A stretch of 64,000 nucleotides of DNA from Bugula neritina (taxonomy: Eukaryota > Bryozoa > Gymnolaemata > Cheilostomatida > Bugulidae). The stretch is from contig OZ037771.1 of NCBI GenBank assembly GCA_964035545.1, positions 13,891,133 through 13,955,132 of the forward strand, in the 5' to 3' direction. The translations under genes and the position numbers were made by a program. The notes below the pieces were generated by a model that was not told where the DNA came from, did not search any database, and worked only from the letters and a program-made list of their open reading frames with translations. Shown one piece after another: positions 1 through 55,500 of this stretch (position 1 is its first letter; each line of letters begins with the position of its first letter).

Positions 1-200
1 GTAATATATATACTTACCTGTATAATACAGAGACTAGAGTAGTATATATACTTACCTGTATAATACAGAGACTAAAGTAGTATATAAACTTACCTGTATA
101 ATACAGAGACTAGAGTAATATATATATATACTTACCTGTATAATACAGAGACTAGAGTAATATATATACTTACCTGTATAATACAGAGACTAGAGTAGTA
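1..200. repeat. 38-bp minisatellite carrying tandem 5' splice donors
   Basis: Five units of 38 bases (one of 42). Read on the minus strand, each has TATTATACAG followed by GTAAGTATATA. The GT dinucleotides follow minus-strand exon-end positions 174, 136, 94, 56 and 18. It overlaps the 3' end of the last visible AASDH exon. Confidence 0.95.
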
Positions 201-3200
201 TATAGACTCCTTAATGTGACTCTCAACCAGCTCTAACAACTTCTTTCTGTTCAGTTTTCCTGAAGGTAAGAAGAAAACTCCCTCAATACAAATTATTGTC
301 TGTTGAATTATTATTTGAAATCAACAAAATTGAAGAAAAGGCCAAATAATTGTGTAAAACTTGTGTAACTTCACCAGCCCTCTCCTGAGCTAACACTTAT
401 ATGAGACAATATGAGACAATTTGCCCTGTCAAAACAGGCACTTGGCAAGCACCTGGACTGATGGATCAAACACTACGCAATCTGGTAATATCATAGCAGG
501 TATTCTAAACAACACCGATATATTAAAAGTTCTTGGGCTATATAAAAGTTTAATGCAGAAACATGCAGTCACTTGGAAAAGTGGCTATAGATTTTTCCAG
601 AACTATAAATTATGAGTTTCCCCCAATGACTGTAGCGGGCATTGCGTCACCTCCATGACTCACCATGACTGTTGACAGGGAGGTGGTCCAGCTGAATAAC
701 TCTGTCTGGTATGTAGTGGGGAGGGAGAGAGGAAGTTAGATGATTCTCCACACCACCAGGGGGCAGCACACCGGAATATACAAGCACTAGACCCTTTTCC
801 TTGTCGTATATAGAACTAGCTTGCTGAACATCAGAGTGTCTTTCAGCATACTGTACAAATAAACATACCGTTGCTGACGTCACACATAATCATTCAGTAA
901 AAAATATTTCCTTAACTTATTCATTGCATAAATTGCGTAACACTTTACTTTGATAGACACTTGAAGTTGAAGATTTGTAAAGACGTCTTTTATAAAAGAA
1001 ACTAACTTGACTCAGGAAAAGTAGGTTTAGTCGGATTCCAGCTCGTTTAATAAAGTCAGCATTCTTTCTACCAGTCACATATATCTGATCATGTGACTGA
1101 GTGACTATGTCACCAGTGTCAAGGTCATATGACTCAGTGATGCCATTGCGGCCGTCGATATAGCAGACTCTAGTTTGACTACCTGCAGAACACACGACCT
1201 TCTTTATTAGTATTGCAGAATACCATTTATTATATTTAATGCTCGATATTATAATATAATAATATTATTATATCATAATATAATATCATGTTATTGTAAT
1301 TAATGTTCGATTTCATATAAAAATGTTCCATTTCATTAATATTTTTGCCCAGCTGGGCATAGTGTAGCACAATTTTTTGGCAAATGTTGTAACTCGATGC
1401 TTTTCTGAATAAAAGTTTCTTGGAGAAAAGACAGAACTCCATTAGCTGTCCAGAGTGTAGCATCTGCTTGAACACCAAATTAGCAACAAGCGTAGAGAAT
1501 TTAGTGTAGATGAAATGACACAAATAGTCTAGCATTACTACTATTCAGTCTTACTACAAGTATGTTAATAAAAACTTATTTCTAACAGAACAAACAATTC
1601 TTGATATGAACACTGATAACATTTATGACACTGACAGATGTGACACTTGTGACAGTGAAGTGTATGACATTTAGGGCACTTGTGACACTGACACTTACGA
1701 TATGAACCCTGGCATATTATTAGATATGTATGACACATATGACACGTATGATACTCATGACACATGTCACATATGACACTGATTCGCTTAACACTTATGG
1801 CTCATGAGACTGACACGAATGACACTGACACTTGTGACATGAACACTGGCATGATGTTGGATATGATTGATTTTGACAGATATCATTAACTGCTCAGAGA
1901 AATATTTATTCTACAAGTTAAAGTTATTTGCATTCTTGCAGATGACAAGCCCAAAAGAGGAAACGCATGGTTAGGCAAACTTTATTCAGATGCTTATAAC
2001 AGGAAATGGTGACTCACACAGTCTGAGTTCAGCTTCTCCATCGTTGGAGTCTGCCTTCAACTTGAACGCCGTCTGACAGAGAGCTGTTCCTATAGGGACA
2101 GGATCCATGCACCTTCTACTATCAGACTTATACTTTCACATCGGACATGTATTACAAGGGTATGCACACAGACATACCCATTTCATGAATTTTACTTTTT
2201 AGACTAAATGTAAATGAGGATACTGCACATGAAAGAAAATTTTATATTCTCATTTTAGCATGTACAGTGCTCCCTTTATACCTCACGAATCCTTTTCTCA
2301 CAAAGTTCTATAGGTCACGAGAAGGGTTTGGACCCTCGTTTTGTAGCTTATGTATTTGTGTATAGGGACAAAATGGTTGAATTTAATGCGTTCCGGGAGT
2401 TAAACCTGGTATGTCACAAATTGAGATTTCAGGGCCCACAGCTTAGAGAGATACGGAGGGAGAACTGTATTACATATAGACACAACCTATACATGTTTCA
2501 CATCAGCCATGTATTAGATTAGTATATTTTACACATGCACCTACGGTTACGGGTAGTCATGACCCAGCCCTTACCTAACAATGTAGTCAGAATCTATCTG
2601 ATAGACTGAGGACCACACAGACTGCTCCGTCAAGCCGTAGACATTAAAGAACTTTATTCTTTTCATGAGTGTCTCTGAACCTCCACACATATCAGACAAA
2701 TCCGCACCTGAATTACATGACTAGTACCTTCAGACAGTAGTACTCTCAGACAGTAGTACTCTCAGACAGTAGTACTCTCAGACAGTAGTACGCTCAGACA
2801 GTAGTACCTTCAGACAGTAGTACTCTCAGGCAGTAGTACTCTCAGACAGTAGTACTCTCAGACAGTAGTACTCTCAGACAGTAGTACTCTCAGACACTAG
2901 TGCTCTCAGACAGTAGTACTCTCAGACAGTAGTACTCTCAGACAGTAGTACTCTCAGACAGTAGTACTCTCAGACACTAGTACTCTCAGACAGTAGTACT
3001 CTCAGACAGTAGTACTCTCAGACAGTAGTACTCTCAGACAGTAGTACTCTCAGACAGTAGTACTCTCAGACAGTAGTACTCTCAGACAGTAGTACCTTCA
3101 GACAGTAGTACTCTCAGACAGTAGTACTCTCAGACAGTAGTACTCTCAGACAGTAGTATCAATACAAGTGAGCATAACTCTCAACAAACACATCAGCACT

Positions 3201-5223: not shown

Positions 5224-5305
<82 letters not shown>

Positions 5306-8649: not shown

Positions 8650-8694
<45 letters not shown>

Positions 8695-12256: not shown

Positions 12257-15200
12257 ATGGCTACAAGATATCTTAGATCTTCAGCGGTACTTGCTAAACA
12301 ACTACTGAAATGTGAATCTAAACATAAGGTAAAACTCAAATTGAAACACTAACACTGTTAGTGTTACTATCAAACTGACACACTAGCAGTTTTAGTGTTT
12401 TAGTTTGATAGTGCTTCACTGTTAGTAACAGTGAAGCACTATCCAACTCCGAGACTCACACTTACAGTTAGTGTTACTGACTATCACCATGGATATCACT
12501 ATCAGTATGAGTATCAGTATGACTAACTCAAAGTTTAATTCCAATAGTAATTCTATTACTATTAGTATTACTATTAGTAATGGTAGTACTAGTTATACTA
12601 AATCTAATAGTAATACTAATAGTAATAAATAATAATTATGCTTCTAGTTGATGTTATAGTAGTAATACTAATATAAATAGTAATACTAATAGTAATACTG
12701 ATAGCATAAAATTAAATATCAATATGAATAATAATTCAATTAGAAGATGATTTAACAATAGCTTTAACTAAGTTTTTGTTTATACTATAACTTAAGTTTA
12801 AGTATAACTGTACAAGATTAAGTACTACTACTAGTACTAGTAGTAGTAGTAGTATTTTAAATTAATTAGTTTATCTAGTTCTACTTCATAGACTGAATTA
12901 TTAAATTTAATCCCATTTTGATTTATTTCTAGTTTTACTAAATTTTGTTTGATGATCATTTTGGATCATAATTGGTGTGCATTTTTTATCTGGTTCTACT
13001 TCTAGGCTTTGGGTTTTATCATAATATTTGAATGTAGCGATTTTTTATTTTGAAGTTAGTAACATAATTATGTTAATTAATTTTTATATCACTATCTCTC
13101 AATCAGTACGTAGTAAAATGTAATGTGTTGCTGTAGATAAGTAGGTAACTACAATGGTAGCTTACAGTTTAAATGCCAATCACAATGTGAAAACACTATA
13201 AAAAGTGAATCGGAAAATCAATATCAGTATGGCTAGTCCAATGAAGTCTAGGCAAACTTGATGGTTAGCCGTGTCAACTTCAAGCCATAGCTTTGATAAA
13301 ACTAAAAGAAATTAAAGTGAGTCCGCTCAAGTGCAGCAATACTTTAAGTTGACTCGGTTTTTCATATTTTAAATACGGTACTTGCTGTTAATCAATAAAA
13401 ATTTCAACTCCAAGTCAGTTATTTGAGAAAGTCAGTTTAGTAGCCTTAGCACGTTGGCTACAATCAGTTTATGTACAAGTACTGCAGTCAATAAGTACAC
13501 AAATCACCATGGCTCTGCTACATCGTCCATTTGTATTATATTGATAGAAACTTTCTACTTCCTGCCGTTCCATTATGTATTCACTCATCTTCTTCATATC
13601 CTATCATCATTCAGCATTAAATACATAACCAGTTGCTTTCCTGACATCACAATTTACCTGCACCAACACATGTATTATAGTGGGAAGCTGGTCACATGTC
13701 ACATGCTTGTCACATACTAGCTAGTTGTAGATTTCCCCTTTTGTGAGTTGTTTCTTGCAAAGAGCTTTAGTGTTTGAAGAATTTTGAATATGCTAAAATT
13801 TTAACATAGCAGCTTTAATTCTGGTGACTGGCCTATGAATTAAAAGTCATAAATGTGAGTTTTGGATGCATACTTTATGGAAGCTTTGCTAGTAAATTCT
13901 TAAAGTAAACTGTAAAAGAACTCAGCAGAAACAGGCCATCTCAGCAGATTAAAAGAATAATCACGTGACATTTTGATAAGGAAATATTATTTATCAGTAT
14001 TTGACAAATAGGCTCAATAAACAATATTATACAGATAATGTACTTATCACTAGTATTTTGGTGTGTAGAAGTTAACCATTACTGTATATTATCCAACTTG
14101 TATATACTGTATAGTGTAGATATTGTATATACGTATAGTAGGTATATGTTTATACTTTATATTCAGTTTGTTTGTGTGTGCGTGTATTCTTTATATGTAA
14201 GTATTCTTATGTACTGTATATCTATATGATATATACTATAATATACTCTATATAGTATATCTTATACGTTTATATCCTCTATGTCTATATTGTGTATGTA
14301 AAGACTGGTTGGTTAACCTACTATCTCTAATTCTCAATGATCTCTAATAATACAATAGATTTTAAGACACCGAGCATTGTTATTTAACTTAGATATCCTG
14401 TCAGAGCCGTAACCTCTCTCTACACGAGTGCGACAGCATGGGTCTGCTGAAGTCAGCCGGTATCGCTGTCCCAGAGTTTCGAGTGGCGAGCACCAAGGAA
14501 CAGGCGCTGGAAGTTGCCGAAGAATTGGGTAATTCTAATTTTTTATTATGAAGAAACATTCTCTGGAGTTTCATTCAGTCGAAATTGAAGTTGGTTGATA
14601 CTTTTTCAGTTGCGATTGTATTGGTTTATATTAGAGAAAGATTCCAACGCGGTTAAGGCAACGTACATTTCTGCAAAGGATGTTTTCCTGACAAATCACT
14701 GAAATGTATTTATTTATTTGTTCATGCAGCGCAAAAAGGAAATAAAGATGTGGTTGTGAAAGCCCAGGTTCTAGCTGGTGGCAGAGGTAAAGGTCATTTC
14801 ACTAGCGGACTGAAAGGCGGTGTCAAGGTTGTATATTCGTAAGTTTCTCTAATTGAACCATTTCCTGTCTAAATATAATCAAACTCCTACAGATGTTACT
14901 GTGACTGCTAGTTGTTTAATGCTAGTTGTTGTATTCTGTACATGTCACATCAGTCACATCACATTGTCACGTATGCAGGGCAGCAGAAGCAGCTGACTTA
15001 GCCGATCAGATGATTGGTCACAATCTGATCACAAAGCAGACGGGAGAAGCCGGGAGAATATGTAGTAAGGTGGGTGTGGTCTAGAATACAAGGGTGTGGC
15101 CTAGAATACCTGGGTGTGGCCTAGAATACCTGGGTGTGACCTAGAATAAAAGGGTGTGGCCTAGAATACCTGGGTGTGGCCTAGATTTTGTGGGTGTGGC

Positions 15201-18200
15201 TTAGAATACCACAGCATTATGGTTAATATTGTGCATGTATGCTGCAGTCTAGTTTAAACTGTTCTATCAACAGGGTACAATGCTCTACAAAAATTCTATT
15301 TTAGAATCTAGAGTTAGTCTGTTAGTTTGACTTTTCCCATGCTATGTAGGCTGCAGTTTGACATTTGACTATGTAGTATGTTACAACACGATGTAGTATA
15401 TTAGTCTGTATGTTACAACACGATGTAGTATATTAGTCTGTGTGTTACAACACAGTGTAGTATATTAGTCTGTATGTTACAACACGATGTAGTATATTAG
15501 TCTGTGTGTTACAACACAGTGTAGTATGTTAGTCTGTGTGTTACAACACTATGTAGTGTGTTAGTCTCGATGTTACAACACTATGTAGTATGTTAGTCTG
15601 TGTGTTACAGGTTATGATAGCTGAGAGGAAGTACGTAAGACGAGAGTTTTACTTTGCCATCACCCTAGACAGGAAACACGCTGGTCCCGTACTGATAGCC
15701 AGTTCTCAGGGAGGTCAGTGCGTCTGTCTGTCTACATCTACTTCCTGTTTACTCCCTCTAGTGACGTCTGCTGGTATCCATGTTGGTCTCTCGTTGCAGG
15801 AATGAACATAGAAGACGTGGCAGCTGAGAATCCCTCCGCCATCATAACACAACCCATCGACATAATGGAAGGAGTGACTGATGCCATAGCCGAACGAGTG
15901 GCAGCGTCAGCAGGTTTTTATGAGGACGGTCTAACTCAGGCCGTAGACACTATCAAGAAGTTGTATGATCTCTTCATTAAATACGATGCTACTATGTTAG
16001 AGATTAATCCTATGGCAGAAGATCGGAAAGGAAATGGTGGGTGGAGTTTCTACTACTAATTTATCAGAGAGAGTGTTTAATGTTTGTACTGCAACTTGTT
16101 TGTCTAATTAAGGGATGTAATTCACACAATTCAAAACTACAGTTGAGTGTGTAAATATCTCATAAAGTCTGCTTATGAAATGCTCTATCAATATGACAAA
16201 GGATTTCATTTATACTAAAGGCCTGTGGAGATCTTTTTGTTTGTGATCACTAGAATCATACCTCTGTGTGGTAACCATGGAGACAGTGTCATGTGACCTA
16301 CAGTTTGTTACTGGTTGCTAAGCAGCGTTGTAGCAATACACTGGCAGTCTGAGCGTGTTGTAGTCTTGTGTATGGACTGTAAGATCAACTTTGATGACAA
16401 CACCGAGTTTAGACAGAAGGAAATATTTGCCTTGAAGGACGAGAGTCAGGAAGACGCTCGCGACAGCAAGGCTAACGCTGCCGGCCTGAACTATATCGCT
16501 CTAGACGGCACCATAGGATGTCTGGGTAGGAGTCGTGTGTTTATAAGTGAATTAGAGATTAAGTTCAAACAAGATATTTTAATCAACAATCTTAATGCAT
16601 GCAGTCGTCAGATTTCTAGTGTTTGGGCACTGGTTTTGTTTTACATTTATTTTCTTTGAAAGTATTTTACTTATTATCATTCCAAGCTTTAAGTTGACTT
16701 TACTTTCTGTTATTCAGTCTAATGTCAGAAAAACCAGTATCTCCATTTTGAAGTGTAAAACTAAACTGTATAAAGATGTATTACTCTAGTTGCCGACAAG
16801 CACACCAGACGGTGCATGAATAGAATAATATATTGTGTTTGTGACTACTACTTGTTGTCTTCCCCTGATCACCTCTGTTGCCTTGGTTCTCTCAGTAACT
16901 CCTCCTTTGTCTGCAGTCAATGGGGCGGGTCTAGCCATGTCCACTATGGATATAATCAAGTTACACGGAGGATCCCCAGCTAACTTCTTGGATGTGGGAG
17001 GCGGGGCTACAGCTGAACAAGTTACTACGGCGTTTGAGTTAATCACAAGTGATCCTAATGTAAGTTTCTTCAAGTACATAGTATAAACGTATAGTGTAAG
17101 TACGTAGTGTAAGTACGTAGTGTAAGTATGTAGTGTAAGTATGCAGTGTAGGTATGTAGTATAAACGTATAGTGTAAGTACGTAGTGTAAGTATACAGTG
17201 TAAGTGTCTCATTATTCCTTATAACTTGAGTGTAATGTGTAGGTACATGATGATTTGAGTGTATCTGGAGTGAGTATATATAGTATAAGTTTAAATACAT
17301 CATGTAAGTATATATTGTAAGTACACACTGGAAGTATGTAGTATAAGTGTATAGTGTAAGTACACTATTTAAATGGCTACTTACATAGTATAAGTAAGTA
17401 TAGTAAGACTATCTGTTAGTTATGTTGCACTCACACCAGATGACCCATGATGGGATATAAATACCGCTGCCGTGGTGATGATGCCGTCTATGCTGCTGCT
17501 GCCTCTTTCAATGTCCCTTCCCTCCTGCTGGACCTTGTATTCCACCTCCTTCTGTATTATTCAGAGTATAGAAGTCTAAAGCGTGTGTTGGCTAATCCTT
17601 GCGTCCTCCAGTATCTAATATGTATAATAAGTCACTTCAACTGTAATCTAAATATAACGAATCTGTTGTCATGGGGTGACAACTTCTAGTTTCCTGACCC
17701 TTTCTAATGACTTCTTCGGAATGTTTTTAGGTAAACGCTATATTAGTGAACATATTTGGAGGAATTATGAGGTGTGACATCATTGCACAGGGAATCATAG
17801 ACGCCGCTCAGAAGCTTTCTCTCAAAATCCCCATCGTAGTGAGATTGCGAGGTAGGTTGTTGCTATGCAGTGTTATACAGCTCTGTGTATAGTGTTATAC
17901 AGCTGTGTGTATAGTGTACTGTATATAGTATATTATATAGTATGTATCTTCTATGCTCCAGGTACCAGAGTAGACTGTGTATAGTGTATAGTGTACTGTA
18001 TATAGTATATTATATAGTGTACTGTATATAGTATATTATATAGTATATTATATAGTGTACTGTATATAGTATATTATATAGTGTACTGTATATAGTATAT
18101 TATATAGTATGTATGTGCTATGCTCCAGGTACCAGAGTAGACGATGCCAAGGCACTGATGGCAGCAAGTGACCTCAAAGTTATACCTTGTGATAACCTGG

Positions 18201-24800: not shown

Positions 24801-24970
24801 TATTATAAAATTTACAGAATGTTTTAGAGATTTTTTCTTTCAGTTTATATGTTTTGTTTATTTAATTTGAAAAATCTAAAGACAATTTTATGTATAATTT
24901 GTAATGATTTTAATCAGTTCCAGAAAATTGCTGCCCAAGGTAACATTTTCTACCACAATACAACTAGGTT

Positions 24971-25451: not shown

Positions 25452-25489
25452 CACCAACATATCAGCCATGCAACTGTTCTATACCTGTC

Positions 25490-29300: not shown

Positions 29301-32300
29301 GCTTTAATCTGTTCCTGTGTTGTCTCCAGGACCTGGAAAATAGAAGAGGTTATCTACAGCAAACATGCTACAGAAGAGTAATATACAGCAAATATGTTAC
29401 AGAAGAGGTAACCTGGAGCAAATATGTTACAGAAGAGGTAACCTGGAGCAGATATGTTACAGAAGAGGTAATCCACAGCAAATAATTCATACAATAATTT
29501 TTAGTCGTAGAATAAAAAACTTACCTTTGTATTCTGATTGCAGATATCCTTTTATTCTCCTGCTCAGCTCGATAATCCCGTCGCAGATTCAAATAGACTT
29601 TGCGACTGACATAACCTCGGAATATTTTCTGTATGCTGACAGCTGCCGCTGCCTCTTTCTGTCTCTGCGTGTCAGCGTCTACCTTCTCCCAGTGCTCTGT
29701 CTGCCATACATTACAAAACTTTGAGAATGACAAACTTTTGTTAATTGTAGTTTTATCAGTAAACTTTTATATATATCGAGTGCAAAGTTCAAACTTTGAA
29801 CTTTAGAGTTACAGAAACTGAATATTTTGAGTTGTGAAAGTGATTTTCGTATACAAGAAGTTGGGCTAAAGATTTAAAGCAAAGTAATAACCAGTAAATG
29901 TGTAACACATATAAGTTAAATGGAGTTGTCATTCCATACATACAACATGGTGATCAACTAAACAGTATAAACATCAGGGTTCAGGCACATTGAAAGCTGT
30001 TTGCTCAGTTGTTGAAAGTGAAGATACTTAAGAATTCTTTGCTTTCAATTTATAACATCACAACAATCCCAACATTTCCCTTTCTGTTATACTGGTAATC
30101 TGCAACAATAATACTTTCCGCAGATCAACACACCTTCATATACTGTGGAATAGGTCGACTAGAGCGTGGATTAGATGCAGACGACAAGCTAGACTTGGGT
30201 CTCGCTGAGTTGCACCTCTGTTCGGGCGGGTGGTAACTGCCCTCCTCATTAGACTCAGTTATAAAAGCTGGTGAGGTGCAGAGCTGTTCTATTGGAGTTT
30301 GAATGCTGCAGTATAAAACAAAGTGGTTAAAAACAAACGTAAAAATTGCTTCTGCGGTTAAATTAAAAGTAAAAAAAACAATTTTTCAAAATCTAATGTT
30401 GAAGACCACAGGAAGCATCGTCTAACTGACGAAATACAAACATAGAAAAACCAAAAGTAACCTTTCTCTATCGAACTTGATTGCGTTATGCACTGAAAGG
30501 TCATCTTGAGTGTGTCGGAGGTCAAGGTGAGAAGACATCGGACGCACGTCAAGATAAGAAGACAACTTCCCGGCGTCCTCTCTCTTTCCATCCTCAATAT
30601 ACACGTCTTCCGCCCGCATCCCTTGAACTATGCAGACGGGACATTATGTTAGAGCAGGATAGAATAGATGTATAGAATATATTTAGATGTATAGAATAGA
30701 TATAAATATATAGAATATATATATGTATAGAATAGATATAGATTATAGATGTATAGAATACATATAAATGTATAGAATATATATAGATGTATAGAATCGA
30801 TATAAATATATAGAATATATATAGATGTATAGAATAGATATAGATGTATAGAATAGATATAAATATATAGAATATATATATATGTATAGAATAGATATAG
30901 ATGTATAGAATATATATAGATGTATAGAATAGATATAGAGAACCTTTCTTGAGATACTCCAGGGGGTTGAGCTGCCGGTGCGCGCTCCTGTCGTGTTCCC
31001 CGCTGAAGGGGTGATTGCGAGTCAGCCTGGGAGATCTGCAGCCGAAAGCACTGTGTACGGAGGGTATAGACGGGGCCGTGCGCATCGGCTGAATTATAGC
31101 GTTAGGATTCGTCTTATCAGTTGATGTCCTCAGCTTCCCAGCAGACTTGGCGGCTTCTCGCGGTTTGTTGAAGTTTCCCTGGAAAACACTTGATAGTCAG
31201 AATATACAGAATATATAGAATATACAGAGCAGCCGTGGTCTAGGGGTTAAAGCGTTTGCTTTGTGAACACGAAGTTGTGGGTTCGAACCCCGACAAAGGC
31301 CATTGGTGATGTTAGGAAGAGCATCTAGTCATAATTGCTCCTGTGCCTCATTTAAACAAGTCCTTAGCCCGTTCTAGCAAAAACCCTTTCCATCAGGGGT
31401 TTCTCACAGGGATAGCGACTATAAACTTGCGTGAGTTTTTTTATAGAATATACAGAATATATATAATACATAGAATATACAGAATATATAGAATATACAG
31501 AATATATAGAATATACAGAATATATAGAATATACAGAATTTATAGAATATATATAATATCCAGAATATATAGAATATACAGAATATACAGAATATAGTAT
31601 ACAATATTATATAGAATTACATTATAGTTTCAACAGAGAATAGGTTCTGTAAGCAGATTTCCTGTGATGATAGAATGAGACGTAATTGGAAGTTATAATT
31701 CTACCATATAGAGTACAGTTTACATGATAAGTTATTTAATGCTTTGTAAATATTAATGTATCATAATATTGTGCTGAATAATCAGTGGGTATTAACACTA
31801 GTAACCGCAATGCAACACTAGTAAGCACAATGCAACACTAGTAACCACAATGCAACACTAGCAACCACAATGCAACACTAGTAACCACAATGCAACACTA
31901 GTAACCACAATGCAACACTAGCAACCACAATGCAACACTAGCAACCACATTAATAAAATACAAAAAGTGTGTCAATATGTATAAAACTACTTCAGATAAT
32001 TATTGTAATTAGAAATTTTAAGAAAGTGCGCCATAGCATAGCACACAATACTGTAGCATGCAATAGTACAGCACACCATAGTATAGCACGCAATAGTAGC
32101 CTACAGCACACTATAGCATACACATATTAGCATAACACACATTAGAATAGCACACAATAGTATAGCACATAGTATTAGCATAGCACACCATAGCCTAACA
32201 ATCTAAACTTAGTATATTCTAAAGTAATGTAGGCAAAATAAATCATCTTACCATGTGAAAAGGAGGCTCGAAGCTGATGGCTGTGACCGCCCTCTCAAGT

Positions 32301-38300: not shown

Positions 38301-41300
38301 CAGATGAGTCATAACAGAGAAGTGATCACATGACTTGCAGACGTCACTAGTGAAAGAAGTCAAATAGCAGCAGAAGAGAGGCATAATCAACTGCAGACGA
38401 CACTAGTGGAAAGAGAACTGTACAGAGACAAACTGAATTCTAGTAAATACGATCACCTTCTAGCTATAGAAACGTGTATAGGTGAGCAAATCTAATTATA
38501 TACATGTATTGTGGGTACATGGAAAAGGATATTTACCTGCTTTTCTAATCATATGTATATCTAAGTAGAATTTTTAAATAAAACAATATTGCATATTTTA
38601 AACGTACGTGTGTGCCTCACAGATGCATGTGTATGTCTATATGTATGTCGCAGGTATGTGTGTATATGTCACAGGTATATGTGTATACATCACAGGTATG
38701 TGTGTATATGTCACAGGTATATGTGATGTCACAGGTACATGTAATATAGAAAGAAGGGCAGGTATGGGAGGATAACTAATAAATACATATTTGTGGAACT
38801 GTACAGGCGAGACAAACTGAGAAGAGGGAGTTACCTTCTCACACTGGGATGATGTTTTACAGTCAATGAACCTGGCAATGTGGTAAAATTACTGTTTAAT
38901 TATAAAACTACATAATATAATATAATAATGCAACATAATATAATATAATGAAACATAATATTAGTTACAAATGAAAGCCACTTTTATCTGGTTACGAGAA
39001 TACTATACAATTTGAAAGTACCTGACTTTCAACGTCTGCTTCTTCATCTACCACTAGTGTACTCCCTGTATCCACCCCTTGTGTGCTTCTTGTATCCACC
39101 ACTTGTGTGCTTCCCGTATCCACCTCCCTCCACGTCACTGATTTGGGGCGAGACGGTAGATTTTCCAAGTCCTGAGATGTCTTCCGCTAAACAGAGAGGC
39201 AATAAAGTATGGCAGCCGTTTCCTGCCTAGTGTTTCTTCACAAATGTCTCCATATAATACCAAACTTATCGCTATTTGATGTAAAAATGATGCGATTTGA
39301 TAGTCACAGCATTCACACAATCAATAACTTAACTCTAATTCCGTATAGTATTACGTAACACGCCAACATACTGAGCTAGAATAGTGCACATCAGATCAGC
39401 TACCTAACTAATAAGATGTAGCATGGATTACTGACTGATACAAGAAGGTTTGAGAATTGCTTACTTTGTTATATACAGCTGGACCACAGTCTAGAAGTTT
39501 AAATACATAAATTTCAAAAAACCAAAACCTTTAAACCTGAAGTTGTACATTCATACATCATATATCATAAAATTTATTTTCCTGATGCAACTATTAATAG
39601 TTCATTGTTAGGTAAAAACTCAAATTCGTTTTAGGGCGCTTTCGGATTCCTTATGGCACAGGAACAATTACAGGAATAATTATGACTGAAAACCCTTCCT
39701 AACATCACTAAAAGCTTTTACTGGGTTTCGAACCCCTGACCTCGTGTTTACCAAGCCAACGCTGTAGCCACTGCACCACTGCTGCTCTGTCCACATTTCA
39801 CTGTTTTATTTCACTGATATAATGCTTTATATACAAGTTTTAAGTAGCAAAGCACCTTTGAGAAAATACTTTATTATTTTAGGTACACACAAAGCGTTAC
39901 CTAGAAGTAGCAAACTTAGCAATATACTCACAGTTGCAGCGTTACTTGATGTAGACCCTTTGATAGTGTCTGTGCTCACAATGCTAGTCTTCTAAGAAAA
40001 AAGCAAGAAATAATAAAATTACTCTACGTATGAATATATTATTAAAAAAGCAATAAAATGTTATTAAAAAGATATATTGTATAAATAAACACATTGTGTT
40101 AAAAACAGTATTTAACAGTCACTAGTAACAACGTAATACATGTGAGCATCTGTAGACATGTAGACAGTATCTGTAGACACGTAGACAGTATCTCTAGACA
40201 TGTAGACAGTAACTGTAGACATGTAGACAGTATCTGTGGACACATAGACAGTATCTGTAGACACATAGACAGTATCTCTAGACATGTAGACAGTAACTGT
40301 AGACATGTAGACAGTATCTGTAGACATGTTGACAGTATCTGTAGACATGTAGACAGTATCTGTAGACATGTAGACAGTATCTATAGAATATACAACGAAT
40401 GGTTACCCGAGTGGATACGGACGACTGAGCTCTCTCCGGTTGTCTAGTAGAACCAGTTTTCTCAGGAAGATGTGAAGACTGAGTTTTTTCAGCATGTCCC
40501 TTCCCTACATTAGTTGAAACTAGAACTGAGGCTGACTTCTTAGCAGACGACCTTGAAGGCGTAGATGACCTTGAAGGTGCAGACGAACCTCTGAATGCTG
40601 GTTGCTATGGTGATAATATATACAAATGACAATTAATCAAGTGCAACAACAGGATGACAGTAATAAAATGCTGCAACAGACACATGAAAATAAAAGCAAA
40701 GAACTTGTCAGTTAAGCTAAAACACTTGACAAAATGTCGAAGCGTTAGTTTTTAATAACAATTATTTAAAAGCAAACAATATTTTTTCATTATTTCAACA
40801 ATTTTAAAAAAGCTAAAGTTACTTTGACTTCTCAACAAACAGATATCAACAGCAATTATGTCTCCACAATATATACACATGCATGGATATATTAATGTTT
40901 ACATAACAATATAGTTTAAGAATTTAAACAGTCTGTTACACAATAACTCAGCTATAAGGTTGTGCACAAAACACTTGTAGCAAGAGTAAATATTGGCAAA
41001 CATACATTGTTTGAGCCTATTTGCATACATGTGCGCTGGCTATGCAATCAATCTTGCAAGTATCAATATCTGATAACTAATCATTGAACACTGATTGATT
41101 AGTCAAAGACAAACAAAGAGTTTGAGAGTCAATTGTAATGTAAACTCTTAAGGTATAAGCAGAGCTGGGAATTAGCACTAGGCTTGCAACTTACTTGGCG
41201 TTGGATTAGTATGCGAGGTTTTAATTACATTTTAAATGTTCACACAGTTTAAAACAATCAATGGTTGAAATGTAGAAACCGTTGTAAGTTTAAAACTCAA

Positions 41301-45272: not shown

Positions 45273-48200
45273 ATGGAAAATAGTAATAAAACACAGAATA
45301 AGTTGAAACTGTCAACCTACAGTGTAAGTATATATAGTATAATGTATATAGGGCCTAATATACTCAAATTGTTTACATTGTCATTACACCCATGGTTAGA
45401 GTTTCAGTCTAAATCATTTTGTATGCAATTAAATCATTTGTACTAAGTTTAGCTAACAATATTGAAATTAAAAAAGGTGTTTGTTAAAATGAATGAATTT
45501 TTCCAACTCGTTGCCTATCCATGATATTTACTGTTCTGTTTTCTTCAATTAAATGTTAACTATATTGGAATAACAAATTTAGTTTTTATAACTGAGTACA
45601 AGAGTGTAATAAAATGTTTGTCTTTGATACAGCCACGAGTTCGACATTTAACTTCACTTTCTGTTAAGAATTTGTCATACAAATGCGCTGATGTCACCAG
45701 CTATTTTACACTTCACAAAGACTTCAAATCTGTAGGTAAGATTGCCAATTCTTTTGTCATTTTGATTTTATGTTATAATATATTTATTTTGTAATAAATA
45801 TCTGGCAATAATAAGATTTGTGCTAGCATGTGATTTAATTATTTATTTTTAAAATGTATAGCTTTTTCTATTGATAACAACTATGTTCAAGTTTGCTGTG
45901 AAATTTTCATTTGCTTATCAATTATTTTGGAAATGCAATACTCAGTCACTGTTCACCAATTATTTTTATTTTTAGAATTTTATAAAAGTGAACAACTTAG
46001 TGGATCTGTAAACTTTTCCTGGAATGCATTCAACCTCACCTATCTGCCCAGTTACTACACGTCTTCCAGTCAAGTCTGTATTCGTGTCTGGGTGACAGAA
46101 GGCACCTCTGACCCTAAAGTTCATCTCGAGTATGAAATTGACTTGAAACTTCTCCACATTCTAGAACCTTCAACTAATTCAGTAAGTCGAGACATTTACT
46201 GTAGCCTCGAGGTCTTCTGCCAACTTCAGTTTAGTGTTTGTTCACTTTGCATATCACGGCACCTCTACTTAAAACTATACTTTTGTTGCAAAATGTTCTA
46301 CTATTGTTTAGTAATCTTATATTATGTATATAAATTTTAACCAGTATTTTAACTCTTGCCCATCAAAGTATGCTGAGTTTTCAAAGGGAAAAATTCTAGT
46401 TTCACTTGATGCTTTTACTAACTGAAAAGAATTTTTGTCTAGAACTCAATTCTTCAGCACTGTATGTTGTGTGATAACTTAATTCTAACACATGGATAGT
46501 TTAATTCTATGATTATGTTCTACAAACTTTATAACCTGTTTCATAATTACATATTATTACACTTCATCATAATAATTAACCTATCACATTATTTATATCA
46601 TATAAGTTGTATTTTGTTACTGTATTGTTGCTATAATTACCATTAGTTATATATCTCCATGTTTTGTTACTAGTTGCTGTATACTGCTAACTTTAGATAC
46701 CAGAGAATGGGGAGATGCATGATCACATGACCTTGACAATGTTTAGTACTCCGTTTGTGATGCCCAATTCACTCAGTCTGACTAAGAAAGAGTTTCTATA
46801 TTTAGATACAAACCAGCCTCTGAAGATATCCTATTCTCCTAACCTACTAGCTCGGTAGGTGACTTACTCTACTGTGAGTGACTATTAGTCACTGGGAATA
46901 ACTAATAAAGACTAACAGTGACTGAGAGTTATTACCTGCTTGCTTGCTTAGTGACTTGCTTTACTGTGAATGACTACTAGTAACTGTGAGTTATTAGTAG
47001 TCACTGTGAGTGTCTAGTAGTCGCTGTGAATGATACATATTTGAGTGAGATAAGGGTTACATCTATTGTGGTCTTTAGATTCCATCACAGTTACTGTAAG
47101 CTAACAATTATTCATCTTCAGAAAGCAAAAGATGATGTTAGATTGCGTGTATTCTCTTCATCTGGTGGTCCATTATATTATAGTAATAGATGTTGTTAGG
47201 AATGAATGGTTTGTAGCAGTCGAAAATGTGTCAAAAGGTTCGAGTTTTGCAAGTAATTTGCTTTATAGAAAGTCACCCAAGGTGTATAGGAATTTAAACA
47301 CATCTGTTTTAACATGATTATAATAAGACACACTTGTGTATTCGACGGATGTTGGTAGATTTGCTATTACTTTATGACATGCAGACTACAGACATTATTA
47401 CGAGCATTGAAGCAGACAGAAAGATCTATAGAGAGAGTGAGAGAGGACATTACTAAGCATTTAACAGATATTCAATCCGTCACAGAAAAGGTAAGAGCTG
47501 TATAAATGTTCAGCCTATCATAGAGAAGGTAAGAAATGTTCAGCCTATCATAGAGAGGGTAAGAAATGTTTAGCCTATCATAAAGAGGGTAAGAAATGTT
47601 CAGCCTGTAGCAGCAGCCATGGATATATGTTACGCCTCTGGTTAACATATTAGTGTTTGGGAGTTTGGTCATCAAAACGTTTGAATATAGATATTAAATA
47701 AATATGACGTTGTTGAATTTTTATATAGCAATGGGAAAATATGTGTATTTTATTTTTATGATCTAATATAGAGCAGCTATAGTCTAAGGGTTGTGGGTTC
47801 TATTCCCAGTAAAGGCCATTGGTAATGTTAGGAAAAGCATCCAGTCATAATTGCTCCTCTGCCCCATCTGAATAAGTCCTTAGCCCGATTTAACAAAAAC
47901 CCTTGTTACCAGGGTTTTTTACAGGGATGGTGACTATGAACTTGAGTTTTTAATGGCAAAAAGTATGAAATTTAATCCTCAACTAGCAATTCAACTAGTA
48001 CTCTATTTAGTTGTGTTAGTCGGCAATAAATGTAGCCTGTGAACAAACCGTTTCTAGAAAGAGCAAGTTGAGCTGCATAAACTCAGACTAGAGAATGTAC
48101 ACCACCGGCACGACTACAGGAAACAGGTGTTCTTGCAGAAGAAGTCCAAACTCTATAGCAAACGTGCCGAGTCGGAAAAGAAAGGTATGTTGACCAGTTG

Positions 48201-51200
48201 TTACTCGTATCGTATTTAAAAAAGAATTTGGTGACGAGTTAAGTTCTGTTTATACCTTCCCAATTTTCGGTCAGAAATTCAATTTGGCCAGTTGAAGTTT
48301 TACCGAATAGCATTGCATTGTAAAGGGCACTCATCAAAAATTTTGAATTGTGATAACTAAATAGCAAGCAAAGGGAATGATAACTCCTTGTATATGTCGG
48401 TATTCATGTTTATAATTATATTAGCTACCTTTCTCAATTATGGCTTTTATGCTGTCAACTCAACTAAGTCATTGCATTTTCAACGGGCATCAAATAGCTA
48501 TTAGAAAGTGAGCTTTTGCATTAATATGATTTCAACGATTTTCAGTAAGACTATAAAGGGGTACTCGGACAAGCGAAATTAACTGAAACTCGAAACTTTT
48601 TTCAGCAAAGGTATAAACGCAACTTTATCTGCTGTTTAGTTTTACTTTGTAAACTGTGCAGAGAAAGAGTTGGAGGCTGTGCAGAAGGCGTTGCAGCAGG
48701 ATGACTACCACTATAGTGATATCAAGAGTGACTTCTACAACTCCAGGTGAGACTCTTCTCACTGAGTGACTGGTTTATAGTCAGTAGTTAACTCAAAGTC
48801 TGGGTTTTTATCCTCAAGGGGTGTAGAGCAGCTTTTTATGAAGTTGTGAAGCATCAGTTTTACAAACTTGGCTATTTTAGATAAACTACTGTCTTGTGCT
48901 GATGAATCTTTACTTACTTTTTAAAGAATCAGTTGAAATTTCCTGCAGACTGCATCAATTTAGTGAGTGAACTTTGCATCAATGAAAATCCCACTATTGA
49001 ATTTAATTATCTAATAAGTTTTATTTGTGATTTTCTTTATCTTTTATATTACTCTATATTATATATTACTCTATATTATATATTACTTTATATTATATAT
49101 CACTCTATATTATATATTACTCTGTATTATATATTACTCTAATTTATATATTACTCTATATTATATATTACTCTGTATTATGGGGTAATATATCATATGC
49201 TTACTTTATATTTCATATTATTGCATATTTTATATTATATATTATTTTCCCTGTATGCTTTATAACCTAGTTTCATATCTGCTGTAGAGAGAAGTTGTTG
49301 AAGGAGAAAGCCCTCCTCTCTAAACGTCACAGACAGATGGTGTATGAGCTCAGTCTTATTTATCCAATCAACCAGGTCAGTCTTTAGAGAGTTCCTCATT
49401 TTATCTAGTTTGATTTCTCTTTTGAAGACATTCAGTTATCTGATGATAGAATCACAGGCTATTTGTACTTAGTGTTTAGTTACTTAATAAAAGAAATGTT
49501 TTAATTCAAGCCTACATGTCTAACAAGAGTCTTGAAATAATGTATTGAATTTCTAAGAATTTAAATTAAATTTATTATTTAGAAATAGGTATGCATAATT
49601 CAAGACTGAAAATGTCTGACGTATATTCAGTACTCCAAAGTCTAAAGAGCACTAACTAGAGACTGTGTGACGTGTATTCAGTACTCCAGGGTCTAAAGAG
49701 CACTAACTAGAGACTGGTTTCTGTTACAGACAGTGAACGGCAGGTATACTATAGCAGGAGTCTGTCTACCAGATCCCGAGATTGTTAACAGTCAGAACGA
49801 GCTCGCCTGCAGCACGGCACTCGGTCACTGCTGTCATCTCGTCATCATGCTCTCACAGTTTCTGGAATTCCCTTTAGAATACCCGCTGGAGTACCGGGGT
49901 TCAAGGTCGTTAGTGTACGACAACCTTCGCCCTCAGCCACCTTCACAGAAAGATCGGTCGTGAGTTGTAAAATTAGTTGGTTTTTAATTTAACATGTGGT
50001 TGATTACATAATTCCTTTCTTCTTAAATTTTAGTGTGGACTATAATTTAGCTGATTTTATTTATTTTAGATCAATGTTAATAAAAACATTAATAGTGCAA
50101 AAATAGTATCTTCAATCTATTATATTTTATCTTATTTTAAATACAAAGCCTGCTTCAGTTTTACACATATCTATCACCTAGTTAATGCAAGTTATGTTCG
50201 TATATGACACTTGCTGCAGGTACTCTTTATATACTTGACACTAGCTGCAGGTACCCTTTAAATACTTGACACTAGCTGCAATATCCTATATACTTATGAC
50301 ACATGCTGCAGGTACCCTCTATACTTATGACACATGCTGCAGGTACCCTCTATACTTATGACACATGCTGCAGGTACCCTCTATACTTATGACACATGCT
50401 GCAGGTACCCTCTATGCTTATGACACATGCTGCAGGTACCCTCTATACTTATGACACTTGCTGCAGATACCCTCTATACTTATGGCACATGCTGCAGGTA
50501 CCCTCTATACTTATGACACATGCTGCAGGTACCCTCTATACTTATGACACATGCTGCAGGTACCCTCTATACTTATGACACATGCTGCAGGTACCCTCTA
50601 TACTTATGACACATGCTGCAGGTACCCTCTATACTTATGACACATGCTGCAGGTACCCTCTATACTTATGACACATGCTGCAGGTACCCTCTATACTTAT
50701 GACACATGCTGCAGGTACCCTCTATACAGCAGAGGGAAAGACAAGAAGCTCTTCCTACACGCCACCTTCTTGTTAAACAGAAACATAGAAAACCTCCGCT
50801 ACTCTCAGGACCTCCACACTAAAGATCCCAAACTCACTCTACGCAACCTCAAGGACCTTTTCGAGAAAAAGTTTGGCGTTGGGTTGGTCTTATGAATTAT
50901 CTCATCATGACAGTCATTGCTGTGCTGGTGTTTGATCCATGTCCAAAGAAAGTAAATGTTCAGCAAAGTTACTTTCTGTGGTTGACCTCAGATTGTTGTA
51001 ATTTCAGTTCGTCTCCGCAGAAAGTGAATGAACCCTTATCCCCGCCCCTTCCTATTCGGAGAGTGGACTCTGTTCCATCATTATTGCGTCGTAAATCTCT
51101 GCCAGGTAAATAATAACCAATAAACTTTATCTCATATTAATCAATAGTTTATACAGTAAAATATATATGAATATTATGATCCACTGTATTGTTGAACTTG

Positions 51201-51486
51201 TTGATGTTTAGCCCTAGAGCAACACAGAAGCCTTGTGAACTGGTCTGGGTTGAACTCGCCTCGCAGTGCAGACGTTTCTAGTGATGAGTCAGTCGATGGC
51301 AACCTGCTCACACCTGCTAGCAATGACAAGGGTTCAGCTGATGAGGTCTCAGCCAATAGCAATAGAGAAACAAACACATTAGCCAATAGCGTGACACTTG
51401 ACTCACATACGAACGAGACTTTAGAATCTAGAGATGAAGTTGATTATAACACTCATCTTGAAAATACGGCAAAGACTCTCTCCTAA
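45273..51486 (+). CDS. UVRAG: UVRAG homologue (UV radiation resistance-associated protein)
   Basis: Twelve exons: 45273-45323, 45633-45735, 45976-46181, 46697-46854, 47385-47490, 48058-48184, 48662-48746, 49288-49375, 49730-49959, 50715-50882, 51008-51105, 51212-51486; about 564 residues. UVRAG is a subunit of the class III PI3-kinase (VPS34 complex II) acting in endosome and autophagosome maturation. In order: RVRHLTSLSVKNL plus SYFTLHKDF (start of a C2-type domain), a C2-like core through exons 3-4, a coiled coil in exons 5-8, then YELSLIYPINQTVNGRYTIAG, CHLVIMLSQFLEFPLEYPL and YPLYSRGKDKKLFLHATFL (conserved BARA-like region). The Ser-rich tail ends KTLS. Exons 1-9 join with strong sites. 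The donor of exon 10 (GG|GTTGGT) is weak and chosen by phase; if unused, translation would stop at 50893. Minisatellites carry copies of the exon-5 donor and exon-10 acceptor. A further 5' exon is possible. Confidence 0.9.
47491..47615. repeat. 30-bp minisatellite carrying tandem donors (UVRAG exon 5)
   Basis: After the real donor GAAAAG|GTAAGA at 47491, three more units carry AGAAGGTAAGA, AGAGGGTAAGA and AGAGGGTAAGA, with GT at 47529, 47559 and 47589 and the shared body AATGTTCAGCCTATCATA. Confidence 0.93.
47769..47955 (+). mobile_element. tRNA-derived SINE, copy 4
   Basis: Starts AGAGCAGCTATAGTCTAAGG; the tRNA-like head has an internal deletion before GGGTTCTATTCCC, and the body matches copy 2 (GGTAATGTTAGGAAAAGCAT). 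Located in UVRAG intron 5. Confidence 0.88.
48241..48624 (-). mobile_element. MITE-like element, family 2, copy A
   Basis: Ends are AAGTTCTGTTTATACCTTCC and AAAGGTATAAACGCAACTTT, imperfect inverted repeats. The interior matches the element at 60134 in inverse orientation (TTTTCGGTCAGAAATTC, TTGCATTGTAAA, CTCGGACAAGCG). No open frame of note. Inserted in UVRAG intron 6. Confidence 0.8.
49050..49185. repeat. TATATTACTCTATAT repeat
   Basis: Tandem 17-base TATATTATATATTACTC units in UVRAG intron 7, not touching an exon edge. Confidence 0.9.
50205..50727. repeat. 31-bp minisatellite carrying tandem 3' acceptors (UVRAG exon 10)
   Basis: About 17 units with exact 31-base spacing from about 50308 on. 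Each has CATGCTGCAG followed by GTACCCTCTATAC. The last unit is the real acceptor and first 13 bases of exon 10 (exon start 50715). Confidence 0.97.
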
Positions 51487-52548
51487 TATTCAGTTGGCTG
51501 TATTAACATGCGAGATGTGGAACAACCCTATAGTTATACTACATATATGTATATATACCTGATTTTCTAGTCCTAAGATACTGCATTTTAACCAAATATT
51601 ACTTAATGTACGTTTACTAATAGAAAAATGATATTAATTTTTATCTAGTTTTATTGTAAAGTATTTTTTTCAAACATGACTTCTGCGTTGATTAATCTTC
51701 AGCCAATCAGAAACTGGTGTCACCATTTGTAAGCTGTTTAGTGAATCCAGTAGAAAATATTCAGAGTTGTGTGCTCTTTCCCTGACAGGTTTGTATAGCC
51801 TCTAAGCTCCCATTAAAGGCTTGTCAACATTTCAACACTACAAAGAATAAAATATATACAATGTATTGAACACACGGCAATAGGTTTTGCCAACAACTGT
51901 CTCTAAATGTTGACTGTATGTCAAAATATAAAAATATTCTAAATTTAGTGACTTTAAAACGCTTTTACAATAATATAGTTATACATAAGCAAAATTAAAT
52001 GCACCGGAATGTTGAACAATTTAATACAAGTGTGAAATATCGTGTAAGTATTTTAACACATTCATGACACTACAAGCCGTTTCAAATTGGTTATTGGATT
52101 CAGAACTTAATGACCCGTTATAATAGCATTTGATATGAATATTTAAAATATGTGTATTATAAATTGACCTCCTTGTACCATAAAAGATAATTTGTATAAT
52201 CTATACTATATCATTTTTATGTAATACAACCAATATTGTAGAAATCGAGTACTACTATAGCTTCTGTGTGTCCTCAAACATGAATAAAATCAAATATCCG
52301 TCTAATATCCGTCTAATACCGAAAAGGGTGTTGCAATTTTAATTCGTTATTTATATCTCAATTATTTAAAGAGATTATATAATCTTTAGGTTTACTGACG
52401 AGTTACATGTTTCGTGACAAGAGTTGGAATAAAACGGTAACTTTTGAAACAATTAATGCTGACACCTAATCAGTAATCATTGTTCATGTGTTTTATATTA
52501 AACTGGGAATGTCTAAAGTCCTTGACCTCAATCATCTAGCCTTAAAAC
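51487..52548. other. Convergent gap between UVRAG and the SLC16 gene
   Basis: About 1.06 kb containing the 3' UTRs of both genes. AT-rich, no repeat or open frame of note. It has a short duplication TATCCGTCTAATATCCGTCTAA near 52297. Confidence 0.6.
51846..51851 (+). promoter_or_regulatory. Candidate polyadenylation signal of UVRAG
   Basis: AATAAA 360 bases after the UVRAG stop codon, in the gap before the convergent SLC16 gene. Only the hexamer supports it. Confidence 0.35.
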
Positions 52549-55500
52549 CTACACTAAAAGTACTTCGTCGGGTGTTTTCTTCTTGGTCTGTCGTTCTGAC
52601 GCCCTCCAAACAATCAGAGCCAACACTGAGGCTATAAATGAAAGACTACCCGCGAGCAAGAAAGAGTATGTGTAGGTCCCTGATCTATCCACCAGCCAGC
52701 CTAGTAAACACATGAGAGCTATGGCTACAGGTTGTAGGACTGCCAGTATACATCTTATTAATTTGCAGTTAATCTTTCAAAATGCACTTATAGCTTAAAA
52801 TTCAGGAGCTTATGGAGAAAAAGTTTTATTCAGCATAATAGGATTTAAAGATGGCTAAGATGTTTCGATGAGACAAAAATTGTTACACTTTTACATCTTG
52901 ATAATCCAATTATTATAGATGTTATGTGGAATTGTTAACTGATGGTAAAGTTCACTAAGCTACCACAATCTACACACACATATATATATATAGTATATAT
53001 TGGAAGCTGTTTTACCTGCTATGGGAGGTCCACTAAGACTACCCAATGCACACAGGAAGTTCATAACTCCCATAGTATTTGATAGGTTAGACTCGCCTAG
53101 CAAGTTAGTGAGTAAGGCCGGCCATACCGCGCCCCCAGTTGAGCTATGAACTATGCCGGCAAGGATACTAAAGCAACACATATGGGAATATCAAAATAAG
53201 CATGTTTTACGGTTTATAAGCACTTCACATATACACAGAGGTTCTGATTGATGGTTTAAAAGTATGAGGATTTCAAGAGAAGATAACTATGTGTGCCGAG
53301 GAAATAGTAAAGTAAGATAATGATTTTTTATTTACAACTAGATACACTTCAAAACAAACTAATAAAGTTTGGATGATTACAGCCTTCGAAATGATGTTCA
53401 CACACATGCATGCTCGCGCGCACACGCACACACACACACACACTCTCACACACACACACGCACGCACACACGCACGCACACACACACACACACCTGTATA
53501 TGATGAGCCCTGAAAAGCTGTGAATGAAAGGGAGGCTGACTGTCAGTACGCCGATGATGAAGCTGGCGGTAAATGTGACGGCGAATGGCGGCACATTCTT
53601 TGATATCAGAGCACCATAGACGAGTCGGGAGGGCATTCCTTGAACACATAGACATAGATATTTCTTGAACACATAGATATTAATTCTTGAACACATAGAC
53701 ATAGATATTTCTTGAACACATAGACATAGATATTTCTTGAACACATAGACATAGATATTTCTTGAACACATAGACATAGATATTTCTTGAACACATAGAC
53801 ATAGATATTCCTTGAACACATAGACATAGATATTCCTTGAACACATAGACATAGATATTCCTTGAACACATAGACATAGATATTCCTTGAACACATAGAC
53901 ATAGATATTCCTTGAACACATAGACATAGATATTTCTTGAACACATAGACATACATATTCCTTGAACACATATAGACATACATATTCCTTGGACACATAG
54001 ACATAGATATTCCTTGAACACATAGACATAGATATTTCTTGAACACATAGACATAGATATTTCTTGAACACATATAGACATAGATATCTTTTGAACACAT
54101 AGACATACATATTCCTTGGACACATAGACATAGATATTCCTTGAACACATAGACATAGGTATTCCTTAAACACATAGACATAGATATTCCTTAAACACAT
54201 AGACATAGATATTCCTTGAACACATAGACATAGATATTCCTTGAACACATAGACATAGATATTCCTTGAACACATAGACATAGATATTCCTTGAACACAT
54301 AGACATAGATATCCCTTGGACACATAGACATAGATATTCCTTGAACACATAGACATAGATATTTCTTGAACACATAGACATAGATATCTTTTGAACACAT
54401 AGACATAGATATTCCTTGAACACATAGACATAGATATTCCTTGGACACATAGACATAGATATTTCTTGAACACATAGACATAGATATTCCTTGGACACAT
54501 AGACATAGATATTCCTTGAACACATAGACATAGATATTTCTTGAACACATAGACATAGATATTTCTTGAACACATAGACATAGATATTCCTTGAACACAT
54601 AGACATAGATATCTCTTGAACACATAGACATAGATATTTCTTGAACACATAGACATAGATATTTCTTGAACACATAGACATAGATATTTCTTGAACACAT
54701 AGACATAGATATCTTTTGAACACATAGACATAGATATTCCTTGAACATATAGACATAGATATCTCTTGAACACATAGACTGTGTATCGTGTTTAGAAATG
54801 AGTATGGGATTAATTACACTCTATTTAGAGTTGTCTACCCACCCATAACACCGAAGATAGACAAGAGCATAGCGGCCTGGGCTGACGAGAATTGTGCATA
54901 GAGCTGGGTGTAAGCTGACAGGTGAATGACTATGATGGAATTTGTAAAGCTGATGAAAGCGCTGGCGGCACAGAGAGCAAGAAATCCCTTGTGCTGGAAT
55001 ATCTTCCAATTCATTACAGTGATATTAGACGCGCTGAAAGTAATAGGTGTGACAAGCTATTGAATGTATTGGAATACTTATATAGAACTATTGCAAATCA
55101 GAACTAATTCCTCAATAATTCAAGTTAATTTTGTGTCTAAAGTTAGAATCTGTAGTAAAGAGTTTCCAGCTAACAAGGGTAAACTTGTGTATACTGTAAA
55201 GGAATCTTAAGTGGTGTGTTTTGTCATTCTATATTATTACAGACAATATGATTAGGAAAGAAAGGTGACAGGTTTTTAGGTTAGGTTTGTTTCATCTATG
55301 ATTACACAAAATGGTGTTGTCAAATGACGATTTTACTACAGTCTCTAAATTTTAGTTTATTTTGTTAAAAGTTAGTTAGTTTTCATAAAAAATAAGTTTA
55401 TATTCCTTACAGTTATATATATATATATATATATTTTTAATAACTTTTTTTAAAAATCTTCACATAGGAATCTTAAATATTAACCAATAAATTATCATAT

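What the first reader, a model, noticed from the sequence alone, without database searches (positions are those of the whole stretch)
1..54775. Minisatellites whose repeat unit contains the adjacent splice site, in several unrelated genes
Seen: in AASDH, UVRAG (twice) and the SLC16 gene, tandem arrays are in register with an exon edge and every unit repeats the splice dinucleotide plus flanking bases; SUCLA2 and the IQ gene show weaker versions. Known: tandem duplication of AGGT-containing segments has been proposed as a route to new splice sites and introns. Inference: this genome may have a local tendency for junction sequences to be amplified, leaving tens of competing splice sites. The arrays could be neutral products of slippage, or could alter splicing or length variation.
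Basis: partly seen in the sequence, partly recalled or inferred. Interest (0 to 1): 0.86.

Follow-up and report, generated by a model that had tools for sequence, protein, structure and literature searches.

The report
Minisatellites that copy splice junctions
In this bryozoan genome some repeat arrays inside genes carry a copy of the neighbouring exon edge, splice signal included, in nearly every unit; the same thing is known from lancelets as "mirages", and here it looks mostly like ordinary intron repeats that happen to cross an exon edge.

Summary
The arrays are real. The window is chromosome 7 of the bryozoan Bugula neritina (chromosome lengths match the published assembly). In AASDH the 38-base unit is 24 exon plus 14 intron bases; in the second UVRAG array it is 18 intron plus 13 exon bases. 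The first UVRAG array (donor) and SLC16 (acceptor) are weaker but genuine. SUCLA2 arrays only abut junctions; the IQ-gene array at 29342 does not resemble its junction. A Watersipora orthologue aligns without a gap at both UVRAG junctions, human UVRAG at the acceptor one, so the copy next to the exon is the coding edge. AASDH carries 10 equally strong donors, UVRAG 16 acceptors of similar score. Two further clear cases lie among 17 non-satellite 10-kb loci from elsewhere. The junction itself is not a favoured target: junction words recur about four times less often than intron words. Array ends do hug intron ends, about 2.5-fold. These are "mirages", described in lancelet Adh, globin, TnC and PGBD5 genes, here in another phylum. 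No RNA or population data were available, and the genome-wide tandem pattern search did not complete.

The parts
1..208 (-). AASDH donor mirage: 38-base unit = last 24 bases of the exon + first 14 bases of the intron; the array continues 215 bases outside the window (L014 3786-4000)
   Evidence: TRF; copies listed; 10 donors all scoring 8.4 against a 90th percentile of 7.07 for predicted donors
174..259 (-). AASDH exon (predicted) whose 3' end (174) is the exon-proximal copy
   Evidence: exon finder; with this end the stretch between LL and DKTF has 31 residues against 28 in Watersipora P0005 (read; alignment gapped and weakly conserved there)
47385..47490 (+). UVRAG exon (predicted) ending ..ACAGAAAAG; the donor at 47491 is a diverged first copy of the array
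   Evidence: Watersipora UVRAG P0001 aligns without a gap across TEK|KEQVE (THM|LEQVE)
47504..47606 (+). UVRAG donor array, 30-base unit ..CATAGAGAAG|GTAAG..; 3 units plus the true donor
   Evidence: none of the other donors compared matches the unit as well as its own donor (196 donors held)
49730..49959 (+). UVRAG exon upstream of the acceptor array (..PSQKDR(S))
50203..50727 (+). UVRAG acceptor mirage: 31-base unit = last 18 bases of the intron + first 13 bases of the exon (encoding YPLY)
   Evidence: 16 acceptors scoring 8.1-9.3 against a 90th percentile of 7.44
50715..50882 (+). UVRAG exon (YPLYSRGKDKK..), 5' edge in the last copy of the array; its 3' end is a prediction
   Evidence: human UVRAG 9rx5/7bl1 and Watersipora P0001: no gap at the junction, one gap 7-8 residues upstream
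53494..53638 (-). SLC16-like exon starting GAATGCCC (MPSRLVYG..)
   Evidence: MCT1, E=0.01, no gap at the junction; MFS_1, E=9.3e-06, below Pfam's cut-off
53635..54779 (-). SLC16-like acceptor array, 25-base unit ..TGTGTTCAAG|GAAT, 46 copies, 4 exon bases per unit
15071..15210 (+). SUCLA2 array beginning 1 base after the donor of predicted exon 14979-15069; abuts, does not contain the junction
15376..15609 (+). SUCLA2 array ending 1 base before the acceptor of predicted exon 15611-15713
29342..29484 (-). IQ-motif gene array, 9 bases from an acceptor, no resemblance to it: not a mirage
   Evidence: IQ motif in neighbouring exon

Best explanation
These are mirage-type minisatellites. This genome makes many tandem arrays of short units in introns. 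Now and then the duplicated seed segment spans a splice junction. Its exon bases and splice signal are then copied with every unit, and slippage or unequal exchange expands the array into the intron. The copy nearest the exon stays the working splice site because that copy leaves the coding sequence intact, so the array is tolerated as extra intron. Shown here: unit anatomy, orthologue continuity at two UVRAG junctions, unrelated units in different genes, junction repeats rarer than intron repeats. Inferred: slippage or exchange as the motor, which copy is spliced in RNA, and selection as the reason why junction repeats are rarer.
For: Exon bases lie inside the units (24 in AASDH, 13 in the UVRAG acceptor array). 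Watersipora UVRAG has no gap at TEK|KEQVE or KDRS|YPLY, human UVRAG none at the latter, so the outermost copy is the coding edge. Units of six arrays are unrelated beyond the AG|GT core. Arrays are common in general: 105 array blocks in 238 kb, 64 of them in 159 introns between predicted exons. Junction words are repeated about 0.25 times as often as intron words (after dropping exons made mostly of array, 5 of 182 vs 171 of 1630 and 2 of 186 vs 106 of 1680). Other loci hold the same thing: a helicase gene like DDX18/HAS1 with 9 AG|GTRAA sites 16-18 bases apart and L004 with TTGAG|GTAAT-like repeats.
Against: Array blocks hug intron ends about 2.5-fold, which plain uniform insertion does not predict. 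Exon edges outside conserved genes come from an exon finder I wrote and trained on the same sequence, without RNA; it misplaced the UVRAG acceptor by one unit (50684 instead of 50715) and called five exons that are 46-100% array. CAGGTA occurs in more array units than dinucleotide shuffles give (7 vs 1.3, 0 of 200; one of 28 motifs tried, controls included). Units exceed random intron windows in donor scores (23 of 73 units at 3 or more on the sense strand, 13.5 expected; 15 against 11.5 on the other).
Confidence: 0.7

Rival explanations
1. Splice junctions, or the intron ends next to them, are preferred birthplaces of minisatellites in this genome, and most arrays that reach into coding sequence are later lost to selection.
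For: Array blocks within 20 nt of a splice site: 22 of 64 against 8.8 expected (0 of 4000); within 6 nt 8 against 2.9 (p=0.0043), with stricter exons 8 against 2.5 (p=0.001); outside the window, within 20 nt, 7 of 38 against 3.0 (p=0.023). Array starts near donors: 7 in -6..+6 and 8 in +7..+19 against about 1.6 per 13-nt bin at 20-149 nt, overlapping TRF rows counted apart. The AASDH array is not in these counts because its best period over the joined sequence is 156.
Against: Junction words themselves are depleted. All 10 arrays that overlap or come within 6 nt of an edge match their own junction best (pct 0.05 or less), as their place implies, but of 15 pairs at 7-19 nt only 2 do, so most near arrays are not copies of the junction. 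Loss of unconstrained flank between array and splice site would also give the hugging. Outside the window the excess rests on 7 blocks, and with stricter exons it is 5 against 2.3 (p=0.06).
Confidence: 0.25
2. The repeated AG|GT units act as a ladder of splice sites used on purpose, for alternative or recursive splicing or to tune splicing efficiency.
For: UVRAG units carry acceptor and donor signals back to back (acceptors 8.1-9.3; 15 donor-like sites, 4.3-4.8, near the median 5.1 of predicted donors), and AASDH units carry strong donors (8.4). In UVRAG, use of an upstream acceptor copy would leave a donor-like site at the join.
Against: Unit lengths 38, 31 and 25 are not multiples of 3, so use of a neighbouring copy shifts the frame. 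The Watersipora orthologue shows no inserted repeat peptide. In lancelet, mirages are reported not to disturb splicing (PMC3087553, PMC3902484, passages read).
Confidence: 0.05

Closest known systems
Mirage minisatellites of lancelets (Adh3, globins BflGb6 and BflGb9, TnC, PGBD5)
   Different: A bryozoan, not a cephalochordate; up to 46 units per array; three genes with four arrays in one 64-kb window and further cases in other loci; RNA splicing and length variation not tested here
Intron gain by tandem duplication of AGGT segments (Rogers model; vertebrate ATP2A1, fission yeast 24-bp repeats, potato RdRp variant)
   Same: Tandem copies of a segment with splice signals next to coding sequence (PMC4974935, passages read)
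   Different: Here the arrays lie at existing intron edges and lengthen an intron; no new intron position was shown
Introners
   Same: Repeated sequence with splice signals in several genes (recalled, no call)
   Different: Units of the six arrays compared are unrelated apart from the splice core, so no dispersed family was seen

Membership tests
Mirage minisatellite | Tandem unit spans an exon-intron boundary and includes exon bases | tested here: met
   AASDH 24 exon bases, UVRAG acceptor 13, SLC16 4; the UVRAG donor unit shares 8 of 10 exon-end bases with the true edge (read)
Mirage minisatellite | Can affect donor and acceptor edges | tested here: met
   donors: AASDH, UVRAG, L004, L009; acceptors: UVRAG, SLC16
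[quoted passage not shown]
Mirage minisatellite | mRNA spliced normally despite the repeats | not testable with these tools
   only protein continuity with orthologues; no RNA
Mirage minisatellite | Length instability between haplotypes or in soma | not testable with these tools
   no second haplotype or reads available
Intron gain by tandem duplication | A new intron position created by the duplication | not tested
   intron positions of other bryozoans were not available
Introners | Dispersed family of similar introns in many genes | tested here: not met
   in the 238-kb sample only: six units compared pairwise, best score 9 (the AG|GT core); among 99 units of period 15-64, 4 distant pairs at score 16 or more, all TA-rich repeats

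The most novel reading that the evidence does not exclude
In Bugula neritina intron ends are preferred birthplaces of minisatellites, so that thousands of introns carry ladders of near-identical splice sites, most of them harmless because only the outermost copy is used, and some in the process of moving exon edges or creating introns.
Probability: 0.25. Interest if true: 0.75.

Novelty: new member of a known kind. Interest (0 to 1): 0.48.

Why it matters
The papers seen here describe mirages in four kinds of lancelet gene. A genome in which they seem common would offer a natural test of how the splicing machinery chooses between 10 to 16 equal sites a few dozen bases apart, and of whether such arrays give rise to new introns. 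It also warns gene annotators: exon finders put extra exons into these arrays, as mine did in UVRAG.

Tried and rejected
Motif enrichment in array units against dinucleotide shuffles (106 units): CAGGTA, AGGTAA, ACAGGTA and ACAG exceed all 200 shuffles, longer splice words such as AGGTAAG do not; 28 motifs were tried, controls included, so this is weak. Sense against antisense splice scores of units: 23 vs 15 of 73 units with a donor score of 3 or more, Wilcoxon p=0.16, acceptors p=0.38, so no clear orientation signal. Array coverage by distance from the edge: no peak at the edge. In one search the figures were 25 vs 12.4 within 20 nt and 10 vs 5.2 within 6 nt, with a block near both ends counted twice; two of those 10 rested on the dropped exons. 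The mended test is clearer than the old one, so I moved the rival from 0.2 to 0.25, the best explanation from 0.75 to 0.7 and the novel case from 0.2 to 0.25. An exact search of the genome for AGGTAAGTAAGGTAAGT found none; the search for three AGGTAAGT words with 8-38 bases between did not complete.
Full report
Source. The genome holding the window has 9 chromosomes of 35.64, 33.58, 32.42, 24.80, 17.72, 16.05, 15.81, 13.35 and 10.88 Mb. They equal Table 3 of the Bugula neritina genome note, assembly tzBugNeri2.1 (PMC11480708, passages read). The window is bases 13,891,133-13,955,132 of contig 7. Clavelina, another animal with 9 chromosomes, does not fit (part 1 of 3 of the paper seen).

The arrays. 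TRF finds 73 rows in the window, 46 non-redundant arrays with period 9 or more. AASDH on the minus strand ends an exon with ..TACTCTAGTCTCTGTATTATACAG|GTAAGTATATATAT; this 38-base stretch is there 10 times with CAG|GTAAGT intact, and an eleventh copy ends without GT. All ten donors score 8.4 on a matrix made from predicted donors whose 90th percentile is 7.07. UVRAG has a donor array, 47504-47606, in which the true donor at 47491 is a diverged first copy. It also has an acceptor array, 50203-50727, with the unit TTATGACACATGCTGCAG|GTACCCTCTATAC; the last 13 bases encode YPLY of the exon. Sixteen acceptors in it score 8.1-9.3. SLC16 has 46 copies of ..TGTGTTCAAG|GAAT, a weak acceptor (2.2) with four exon bases. 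SUCLA2 arrays stop one base short of a donor and of an acceptor; the IQ-gene array at 29342 does not match its junction.

Which copy is the edge. The spliced UVRAG peptide aligns with human UVRAG (9rx5, E=2e-25) over the acceptor junction S|YPLY; the one gap is about 8 residues upstream. UVRAG of the bryozoan Watersipora subatra (P0001, 49% identity) has no gap at either junction, QSVTEK|KEQVE and PSQKDRS|YPLYSRGKDKK; there is a two-residue gap 7 residues before the second. So the coding sequence excludes the repeats and the copy next to the exon is the edge. Watersipora AASDH (P0005, 44%) has 28 residues where the Bugula reading that ends at the first array copy has 31, and 21 without the array-like tail (counted); the stretch is poorly conserved, so the AASDH edge is less certain. 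The SLC16-like exons align with MCT1 without a gap at the junction, at E=0.01.

Other loci. Of 18 further 10-kb loci (9 at 3 Mb on each chromosome, 9 from a random list), one (L011) is satellite throughout and was dropped, leaving 17 (170 kb). A helicase gene in L009 has its donor ..GCACAG|GTAAAAT followed by 8 further AG|GTRAA sites 16-18 bases apart; the exon pair matches HAS1/DDX18 chains across the junction YVHR|VGRTAR (best of 80 matches; a one-residue gap lies six residues after it). L004 repeats TTGAG|GTAAT-like stretches. In L006 (REV1-like) and L008 long arrays begin at the donor or after 3 intron bases. Two clear cases in 170 kb would mean of the order of thousands in the genome, with a wide margin.

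Is the junction a favoured target? I wrote an exon finder, trained on 39 seed peptides of the window and then on its own predictions. For exons scoring 11 or more, an 18-base word over the junction (8 exon, 10 intron) recurs within 130 bases, with up to 4 mismatches, at 5 of 185 donors and 3 of 190 acceptors. For words inside the same introns it is 171 of 1657 and 110 of 1714 (p=0.0003 and 0.005). The direction is the same for all four word definitions. It is not significant for acceptors with only 4 exon bases (p=0.08), nor for acceptors in the loci outside the window taken alone, nor for several comparisons with stricter exons. An earlier run with other control positions gave 237 of 2337 and 157 of 2416 and the same outcome. 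Array coverage rises from 1-3% in the last 20 exon bases to about 17% at 60-150 nt into the intron from donors, with no peak at the edge.

Against this stands the position of arrays in introns. After dropping five predicted exons that are mostly array, 64 array blocks lie in 159 introns. Measured on array-free flanks, 22 are within 20 nt of a splice site against 8.8 expected (0 of 4000 simulations), and 8 within 6 nt against 2.9 (p=0.0043); donors 5 against 1.5 (p=0.014), acceptors 3 against 1.4 (p=0.17). Within 20 nt the window's blocks give 15 of 26 against 5.8, the other loci 7 of 38 against 3.0 (p=0.023; with stricter exons 5 of 32 against 2.3, p=0.06). The AASDH array is not among them, because TRF gives the joined array a period of 156 and I kept periods up to 130. 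Both results can hold if arrays readily reach the intron ends but rarely take in exon bases. Whether that reflects where arrays are born, or loss of the free flank, cannot be told here.

Mechanism. Units of the six clear arrays are unrelated except for the splice core, so they arose separately, not from a dispersed element. In the UVRAG acceptor array the copies nearest the exon are identical and those furthest away are degenerate (0 mismatches in the last 7; 5 and 8 in the first two), as if the exon-side copy feeds the array; SLC16 and AASDH show no such trend. The simplest account is local duplication across a junction followed by slippage or unequal exchange, tolerated because the outermost copy keeps the coding sequence. 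That RNA uses the outermost copy is inferred from protein only.

Known before. Tandem repeats over exon-intron boundaries are called mirages in lancelets. PMC3087553 describes them in globin genes and cites Adh3, reports regular splicing by RT-PCR and length instability, and proposes a route to new introns; PMC3902484 adds TnC and PGBD5 (passages read). Intron gain by AGGT duplication is reviewed in PMC4974935 (passages read). Searches for mirages, intronic minisatellites or such repeats in bryozoans listed none in a bryozoan, but I saw only the top rows of most lists, and the library holds only open-licence papers, so this is no proof of absence. The original Adh3 paper was not read.

Verdict. 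A real and attractive example of a known kind in a new phylum, apparently frequent there; preferential amplification of the junction itself is not borne out by the sample, while a milder preference of arrays for intron ends is.

Noticed in passing
L011 1-10000 (G000:C4:14615688-14625687): The whole randomly placed 10-kb stretch is one 20-base satellite (about 509 copies, 69% matches).
   Followed up: no
L014 2576-2794: A 12-base array inside AASDH stays open in frame (TSVD repeats) and was predicted as an exon next to PPRKKLK; it may be a coding minisatellite or a finder artefact.
   Followed up: partly
window 39046-39124: A 24-base array lies in an open frame (VDTGSTQV repeats) that the finder first read as part of an exon and later cut at the array; perhaps a coding minisatellite.
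   Followed up: no
window 50203-50727: Polarity: copies nearest the exon are identical, copies furthest away are degenerate or deleted.
   Followed up: partly
window 48549-48701 and 59988-60308: Stretches on opposite strands share peptides in translation (DYKGVLG, FFQQRYKRN), probably a dispersed repeat.
   Followed up: no
window and L001-L014: Array units are rich in AGTAT words compared with non-array DNA (38 of 106 units, 10.1 expected), but AGTATA is not above dinucleotide shuffles.
   Followed up: partly
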